64,000 bases of DNA from positions 1 to 64,000 of the forward strand of contig JAFATB010000009.1 of the NCBI GenBank assembly GCA_019244185.1. The letters run 5' to 3'. Below are positions 49,594 to 50,836 of the stretch, in pieces (the first letter of the stretch is position 1; each line of letters begins with the position of its first letter). A program made the translations under genes and the position numbers. The notes under the pieces were generated by a model. The model did not search any database. It was not told where the DNA came from and was given only the letters and a program-made list of their open reading frames with translations. Origin of the DNA: Acidobacteriota bacterium (lineage in GTDB: Bacteria; Acidobacteriota; Thermoanaerobaculia; Gp7-AA8).

Positions 49594-50142
49594 ATGGCCA
49601 TCGGAAAAATCAGAGAAGGGTTGTACGGCGTGATCGCCGAATTTCACGACCCGCAGGCGCTGCTCGACGCGACGAACGCGGTGCGCGAGCACGGCTACAC
49701 GTCCATCGACGCGTTCTCGCCGTTCCCGATCCACGGTCTGGCCGAGGCGGTCGGCTTCCACAAGTCGCGCCTCTCCGCGATCGTTCTCGGCATGGGCATC
49801 CTCGGCGGTCTGGGCGGCTTCTTCATGTGCTGGTACGCGAACGTCGTCAGCTATCCGCTCAACATCGGCGGCAAGCCGTACAACTCGTGGCCGGCGTGGA
49901 TCCCGATCACGTTCGAATGCACGATTCTCCTCGCCGCGTTCGGCGCCGTGCTGGGCATGCTCGCCCTCAACGGGCTGCCGATGCCGTATCACCCCGTTTT
50001 CAACGTGCGCCGCTTCGACTCCGCGTCGCGCGACAAGTTCTTCCTCGTCATCCAGGCGCGCGACCCGCGGTTCAACCTCGACGAAGCGCGCGCCCTCCTC
50101 AAAACGCTCGGACCACGGGAGGTCACCGATGTTCCGTGGTGA
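49594..50142 (+). CDS. actD: Alternative complex III subunit ActD (DUF3341)
   Basis: YGVIAEFHDPQALLDATNAVREHGYTSIDAFSPFPIHGL. Confidence 0.95.
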   Translation: MAIGKIREGLYGVIAEFHDPQALLDATNAVREHGYTSIDAFSPFPIHGLAEAVGFHKSRLSAIVLGMGILGGLGGFFMCWYANVVSYPLNIGGKPYNSWPAWIPITFECTILLAAFGAVLGMLALNGLPMPYHPVFNVRRFDSASRDKFFLVIQARDPRFNLDEARALLKTLGPREVTDVPW

Positions 50143-50836
50143 TGATCGCGCGCTGCGCGCGCGGAATGAAGAACGCAGAACGCAGAACGCAGAATGCAGA
50201 AAGCGTTCTCCGCGTCGTCATTCTTCATTCTTCATTCTGCGTTCTGCGTTCTTCATTCTGCTTTTCGTCATGGCCGGTTGCCGGCAGAAGATGTCCAACC
50301 AGCCCAAGTACGACCCGCTCGAGGCGTCGGACTTTTTCGCGGACGGCATGTCCGCGCGGCCGCGCGTGCCGGGCACGATCGCGCGGGGCGAGCTGTCGAA
50401 CGATCCGTTTCTCGATACCGGCAAGATCAACGGCGTCGAGGCGGACGGCTTCCCGTTCCCGGTGACGCGCGCCGTCGTCGATCGCGGCGAACAGCGCTTC
50501 AACATCTACTGCTCCGAATGCCACGGCCGCGTCGGCGACGGCAACGGCATGATTCCGTCGCGCGGCTATCGCCATCCGCCGTCGTTCCACACGGCGTCGC
50601 TGCGCGCGGCGAACACGGGACATTTCTTCGACGTGATGACCAGTGGATTCGGCGCGATGCCGCCGTACGGCACCATGATTCCGACGCGCGACCGCTGGGC
50701 GATCGTCGCCTACATCCGCGCGCTGCAGCTCAGCCAGAACGCGACCGTGGCGGACGTGCCGCCCGCGCAGCGCGCGAACCTCGACGCTCCGGCGGAAGAC
50801 GCGGCCGCGAGCCCGGCGGCGGAGGCGACGCACTGA
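50129..50836 (+). CDS. actE: Alternative complex III monoheme cytochrome c lipoprotein ActE
   Basis: VMAGC lipobox, CSECHGR heme site; only plausible N-terminus with an export signal reads through a heptamer-repeat element. Confidence 0.88.
   Translation: MFRGDDRALRARNEERRTQNAECRKRSPRRHSSFFILRSAFFILLFVMAGCRQKMSNQPKYDPLEASDFFADGMSARPRVPGTIARGELSNDPFLDTGKINGVEADGFPFPVTRAVVDRGEQRFNIYCSECHGRVGDGNGMIPSRGYRHPPSFHTASLRAANTGHFFDVMTSGFGAMPPYGTMIPTRDRWAIVAYIRALQLSQNATVADVPPAQRANLDAPAEDAAASPAAEATH
50165..50257. repeat. Heptamer-repeat hairpin, copy 2 (inside actE 5' coding region)
   Basis: 37-nt arms 50165-50201 and 50221-50257 with 3 mismatches; 19-nt loop. Confidence 0.9.

What the first reader, a model, noticed from the sequence alone, without database searches (positions are those of the whole stretch)
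50129..50277. A repeat element appears to have become the signal peptide of the essential cytochrome subunit ActE
The only ActE N-terminus with an export signal reads straight through the second heptamer hairpin: MFRGDDRALRARNEERRTQNAECRKRSPRRH-SSFFILRSAFFILLF-VMAGC. The left arm (gaacgca units) encodes the charged n-region and the right arm (ttcattc/tgcgttc units) encodes the hydrophobic core, ending exactly at the lipobox. A non-coding repeat has seemingly been exapted as a lipoprotein targeting sequence within a conserved respiratory operon.
Basis: partly seen in the sequence, partly recalled or inferred. Interest (0 to 1): 0.82.

Follow-up and report, generated by a model that had tools for sequence, protein, structure and literature searches.

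The report
Repeat DNA that writes export signals
In a group of Acidobacteria, a dispersed palindromic repeat of 7-letter units sits at the start of many genes for exported proteins, including a respiratory-chain cytochrome, and itself encodes the export signal, with the repeat unit differing from species to species.

Summary
The actE reading frame (50129-50836, strong ribosome site, start codon overlapping actD) runs through a 41-nt-arm heptamer hairpin (50161-50261) that encodes most of the n-region and the start of the hydrophobic core. The lipobox (VMAGC, Cys51) lies six codons past the repeat. As a c-type cytochrome, ActE needs an export signal, and no other frame or start supplies one.

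The reading as a one-off exaptation is too narrow. The genome has about 65 such elements. Nine sampled genes open through their start: eight exported, one a membrane protein, none cytosolic. The sister genome's sample shows at least 13 more. In the same family, actE, batD and a C39-TPR lipoprotein gene carry period-7 arrays at the same place in about half the orthologs, with different units. Between G000 and G001, 17 of 58 elements sit at corresponding places, nearly all with different units: positions persist while units are renewed.

Likely mechanism: the palindrome is purine-first on both strands, so most frames read basic-then-hydrophobic; it is tolerated as, and replaces, signal peptides. 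Export itself is inferred. One predicted precedent exists (RU-2 in YPO1552); scale, recurrence and unit turnover appear new.

The parts
50129..50836 (+). actE, 235-aa precursor of the monoheme cytochrome c lipoprotein of alternative complex III
   Evidence: ORF; PF13442 E 1.6e-13; ActE chains of solved complexes
50117..50123 (+). ribosome-binding site gggaggt before the actE ATG
   Evidence: sequence; same place in relatives
50129..50163 (+). unique part of the signal peptide before the arrays (MFRGDDRALRAR), start codon overlapping the actD stop at 50140-50142
50161..50201 (+). left, purine-rich arm of the heptamer hairpin; array part encodes NEERRTQNAECR (n-region)
50202..50220 (+). loop, encodes KRSPRRH
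50221..50261 (+). right, pyrimidine-rich arm; encodes SSFFILRSAFFIL (start of hydrophobic core)
50267..50281 (+). lipobox VMAGC, Cys51 codon 50279-50281, outside the arrays; fits the PROSITE PS00013 motif as recalled except that the Cys lies unusually far from the start
   Evidence: sequence; rule from own knowledge
50270..50272 (+). internal ATG used as start in the public protein record (188 aa), which loses the signal peptide
   Evidence: P0001
50510..50524 (+). CSECH haem-binding motif, which requires export for haem attachment
   Evidence: sequence
48042..48138 (.). the other heptamer hairpin of the window, between actB and actC; non-coding, with two counterparts in G001
49594..50142 (+). 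actD
   Evidence: PF11821
44333..52050 (+). operon actA-actF (actA 44333, actB 45009, actC 48155, actD 49594, actE 50129, actF 50836)

Best explanation
The hairpin is one copy of a dispersed, roughly 95-110 bp palindromic element made of 7-nt units. Its purine-rich arm comes first on both strands, because it is its own reverse complement. Seven is not a multiple of three, so every frame reads all registers of the unit: the left arm gives polar and basic residues, the right arm gives F, L, I, S, A and C. A copy lying between a start codon and the mature part of an exported protein therefore works as a signal peptide and is tolerated or kept there, whereas a copy fused to a cytosolic protein is not. 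In actE it now is the working export signal. Positions are inherited between related species while the unit is renewed genome-wide, so the same signal peptides are rewritten repeatedly. Shown: sequence, frame, recurrence, association with export, unit turnover. Inferred: that the peptide is recognised and processed, and how units are renewed.
For: In-frame element with ribosome site upstream and lipobox downstream. ActE must be periplasmic (CxxCH; ActE chains; lipobox and membrane proximity in R. marinus ActE, PMC5928083). Eight of 17 readable family genomes have a hairpin in the actE signal, with five different units. Own genome: nine genes fused to an element, eight exported (actE, OEP, SBP, BatD, sulfatase, C39-TPR, VWA, CrtC) and one membrane protein (YfhO). 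Fused versus non-fused against exported: Fisher p 5.5e-7. Sister genome: at least 13 more, many starting at the element's own ATG, MKAEGRRQKAE. Orthologs: C39-TPR 8 of 15, BatD 9 of 15, VWA 3 of 15 with arrays in the signal region. ActE homologs: a segment of 9 aa or more encodable by exact period-7 DNA in 29% of 82 signal regions, 0.2% in shuffles, 0 in mature parts; other periods 0-2%. Frames of 58 elements: 67% basic-then-hydrophobic against 11% for shuffled DNA, 15% for random heptamer hairpins and 0% pyrimidine-first. 17 of 58 elements have a G001 counterpart at matching flank distances, with a different unit in nearly all.
Against: No SignalP or experiment was available. The signal peptide would be 50 residues long, with a 31-residue n-region, and an arginine interrupts the hydrophobic stretch. 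Not every frame is open: 61% of frames contain a stop, mostly in the left arm. A shuffled palindrome of the same composition reaches 56% basic-then-hydrophobic, so purine/pyrimidine polarity matters more than the exact heptamer. With units such as GAATGTT the repeat covers only the n-region and the core is ordinary. Assignment of fused genes and their export status was partly manual.
Confidence: 0.85

Rival explanations
1. Neutral tolerance only: signal peptides, above all their n-regions, are the least constrained coding DNA, so any repeat may land there; the element supplies nothing and the residual native core does the work.
For: Other palindromic repeats also occur in these n-regions (CHPERSEG-type in P0024, P0050, P0057 and L253). 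GAATGTT-type units leave the core unique. The last six residues before Cys51 in actE are unique sequence.
Against: In actE, batD, OEP, sulfatase and most G001 cases the right arm is most of the hydrophobic core; without it ActE keeps only LFVMAG. This is largely a question of neutral versus adaptive origin and does not deny that the repeat is now the signal.
Confidence: 0.35
2. The hairpin is kept as an RNA or DNA structure (mRNA stabiliser, attenuator, recombination site) in operons and its coding sense is a by-product.
For: Very stable fold. Most copies are intergenic, just before start codons of cytosolic genes; a second copy lies between actB and actC.
Against: Does not explain why all nine fused genes are exported or membrane proteins, nor the in-frame continuity in every ortholog. 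No Rfam family reached its gathering score. Not exclusive.
Confidence: 0.2
3. Each species acquired its actE element by independent insertion, rather than inheriting the position and renewing the unit.
For: Presence on the act tree is scattered, about five changes either way. Two repeat families overlap in the C39 gene of G014 and of G001, which looks like successive insertions.
Against: 17 shared positions between G000 and G001 with flank distances mostly within a few to about 20 nt, against roughly 0.8 expected at random. Units are concordant between actE and batD within a genome, 6 of 6.
Confidence: 0.3
4. Translation of ActE starts at ATG 50270 and the repeat is untranslated leader or an assembly error.
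For: The public protein record begins there (P0001, 188 aa).
Against: MAGCRQKM... has no export signal although ActE binds haem c outside the cytoplasm; no ribosome site before 50270; strong one before 50129; relatives use the upstream start in the same frame.
Confidence: 0.04

Closest known systems
RU-1/RU-2 (ERIC-type) repeats fused to genes in enterobacteria, Delihas 2007 (PMC2759123)
   Same: Small repeats fused in frame to genes; RU-2 forms part of the predicted signal peptide of Y. pestis YPO1552 while homologs have unrelated signals.
   Different: A few predicted cases, fixed 127-168 bp repeats without heptamers, no recurrence at the same gene in many species, no unit turnover.
Rickettsia palindromic elements (Ogata et al. 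2000, cited in PMC2759123)
   Same: Palindromic repeats inside protein-coding genes, kept in frame.
   Different: Not heptamer arrays (own knowledge); no reported link to signal peptides found here.
Heptameric tandem repeats of cyanobacteria and other bacteria (STRR; heptamer abundance noted in PMC4692102)
   Same: Seven-nucleotide units, many dispersed copies per genome.
   Different: Described as intergenic (own knowledge); no coding role found in the papers searched.
REP/REPIN elements with RAYT transposases (PMC3116915; GTAG/CGTC tags PMC3733652)
   Same: Short dispersed palindromes at intergenic positions.
   Different: No Y1 transposase in G000, no GTAG tag seen at the ends, arms made of heptamers.
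ActE of alternative complex III (R. marinus, PMC5928083; PDB 6f0k, 8k9e)
   Same: Monoheme cytochrome with lipobox.
   Different: Only the origin of the signal peptide.

Membership tests
Alternative complex III subunit ActE | sequence similarity to ActE chains, CxxCH, position between actD and actF | tested here: met
Bacterial lipoprotein signal peptide | lipobox [LVI..]xx[AGS]C after a hydrophobic stretch, K/R near the start | tested here: met
   FFILLFVMAGC, R3; length of 50 residues is atypical
Bacterial lipoprotein signal peptide | cleavage and lipidation at Cys51 | not testable with these tools
   needs labelling or proteomics
REP/REPIN | Y1 (RAYT) transposase in the genome | tested here: not met
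   0 matches of PF01797 in G000; most relatives have Y1 proteins
REP/REPIN | GTAG or CGTC tag at the palindrome end | tested here: not met
   consensus outer end AAAAGCTGAATGAAG, read by eye
MITE | target-site duplication | tested here: not met
   no direct-repeat excess beyond the palindromic end itself
Heptameric repeats (STRR-like) | tandem 7-nt units in many dispersed copies | tested here: met
Known structured RNA | match to an Rfam family at its gathering score | tested here: not met
   only sub-threshold chance-like matches

The most novel reading that the evidence does not exclude
An unknown system renews dispersed heptamer palindromes genome-wide in concert, and because the element reads as a signal peptide in most open frames on either strand, each renewal simultaneously rewrites the signal peptides of dozens of exported proteins without breaking export.
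Probability: 0.5. Interest if true: 0.9.

Novelty: new variant of a known kind. Interest (0 to 1): 0.8.

Why it matters
Signal peptides are treated as degenerate but protein-derived sequences. Here many of them, including that of a respiratory-complex cytochrome, are written by a dispersed DNA repeat. That gives a concrete route by which repetitive DNA becomes coding sequence, explains how signal peptides turn over quickly, and provides natural series (same gene, same place, different heptamer) for testing what export machinery accepts. It also warns that gene callers can cut off such signals.

Tried and rejected
Sequencing error or frameshift: rejected, relatives share the frame. RAYT-driven REPINs: rejected for G000. 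Target-site duplications: none found. Rfam: nothing at threshold. Literature searches found no report of heptamer repeats as signal peptides; the library lacks most subscription journals. Loops as remnants of the native signal peptide: considered because actE loops of several species encode R-R plus hydrophobic residues, but in G000 actE the loop resembles loops of other elements, so left open. The tree of act genes could not separate one old insertion from several. A Pfam scan of two G001 proteins failed on coordinates and was not repeated.

Full report
Check of the observation. ActE is encoded at 50129-50836. Its ATG overlaps the stop of actD and follows gggaggt. The frame reads through a hairpin with 41-nt arms built of 7-nt units. 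The left arm encodes NEERRTQNAECR, the loop KRSPRRH, the right arm SSFFILRSAFFIL. LFVMAG and the lipobox cysteine (Cys51) come from flanking DNA, so the repeat ends six codons before the cysteine rather than exactly at it. The RNA hairpin is highly stable. The public protein record of this very gene starts at the internal ATG 50270 and lacks any signal (P0001).

Why the repeat must be the signal. ActE is a c-type cytochrome homologous to ActE chains of solved alternative complex III. R. marinus ActE has a lipobox and its N-terminus reaches the membrane (PMC5928083). Haem c attachment occurs outside the cytoplasm (established knowledge), so an export signal is required. The start codon with the ribosome site leads through the repeat, and no other frame connects to the mature protein.

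Relatives, actE. Family genomes without the repeat have short, ordinary lipoprotein signals in the same place and frame. Eight of the 17 genomes that could be read (own genome included) carry a heptamer hairpin there, with units GAACGCA, GAAGGCA, GAATGCA, GCAAAAT or CAGCCGA. On a tree of ActA-F these are scattered, and even sister genomes differ in unit. In 75 more distant act loci, 6 of 17 period-7 arrays fall in the 150 nt before mature ActE, which is 2.5% of the sequence (Poisson p 5e-6); they include Acidobacteria and Chloroflexi. Among 82 ActE homologs from public metagenomes with a pre-sequence of 30 aa or more, 29% hold a segment of at least 9 residues encodable by exactly 7-periodic DNA, against 0.2% of shuffled and 0% of mature segments; periods 5, 6, 8, 9 and 10 give 0-2%.

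Other genes. G000 holds about 65 elements, with no match of the reversed control pattern. In the fetched sample nine genes have the element between start and body without an alternative start: actE, an outer-membrane efflux protein, a solute-binding protein, BatD, a sulfatase lipoprotein, a C39-TPR lipoprotein, a VWA protein, CrtC and a YfhO membrane protein. Eight are exported, one is a membrane protein, none is cytosolic. Most other neighbours have their own start within some tens of nucleotides after the element and are cytosolic or polytopic. Fused versus non-fused against exported gives Fisher p 5.5e-7 (classes assigned partly by hand). In G001 at least 13 further genes behave so, many starting at the element's own ATG (MKAEGRRQKAE). 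Orthologs of the C39-TPR, BatD and VWA genes carry period-7 arrays in the signal region in 8, 9 and 3 of 15 loci. Where the unit is GAATGTT, the repeat covers only the n-region and the core is ordinary.

Why it works. The element is a palindrome with the purine arm first, so both strands read purine then pyrimidine. Of all frames of 58 elements, 93% have a hydrophobic right half and 67% are also basic on the left, against 11% in shuffled DNA, 15% in random heptamer hairpins and 0% with the arms swapped. A shuffled palindrome of the same composition reaches 56%, so polarity is the main cause. Stops occur in 61% of frames, nearly all in the left half, which limits the usable frames.

Turnover. 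17 of 58 G000 elements have a G001 element at the corresponding place, with distances to conserved flanks mostly agreeing within a few to about 20 nt; a rough random expectation is 0.8. Units differ in nearly all (GAACGCA against GAAGGCA). actE and batD have concordant units within each of the six genomes that carry both. GAATGTT abundance matches the genomes whose C39 or BatD signals use it. I infer inherited positions and genome-wide renewal of units, by conversion or by re-insertion at the same sites; two overlapping families in the C39 gene of G014 and G001 show that successive insertion also occurs. G000 lacks Y1 transposases and target-site duplications, so the renewing activity is unknown.

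Known or new. The closest precedent is a prediction that the RU-2 repeat forms part of the signal peptide of Y. pestis YPO1552 (PMC2759123). Heptameric repeats are known to be abundant in bacteria (PMC4692102, abstract). I found no report of heptamer palindromes as recurrent signal peptides. Limits: no signal-peptide predictor or experiment, sampled rather than complete genomes, a G001 sample chosen around its elements, and partly manual gene classes.

Noticed in passing
P0024, P0050, P0057; L253 (VWA gene of G001): A different, CHPERSEG...LGMT-type palindromic repeat also appears in the n-regions of exported proteins.
   Followed up: no
L084:4233-4664: Two heptamer arms 368 nt apart, as if something had entered the loop.
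   Followed up: no
L103:4131-4276: The only pair seen in G000 with the pyrimidine arm first.
   Followed up: no
window 50270: The public protein record starts ActE at an internal ATG and loses the signal peptide.
   Followed up: partly
L126:3757-3856 (-) and L300:3314-3413 (+): M16 peptidase genes next to an element whose called start lacks an export signal; the element may encode it.
   Followed up: no
window 48042-48138; L061:6300-6615: The actB-actC gap holds one element here and two in G001.
   Followed up: partly
L185, L203 (Chloroflexi/Anaerolineales act loci): Heptamer-derived actE signals also in another phylum, with unrelated units.
   Followed up: partly
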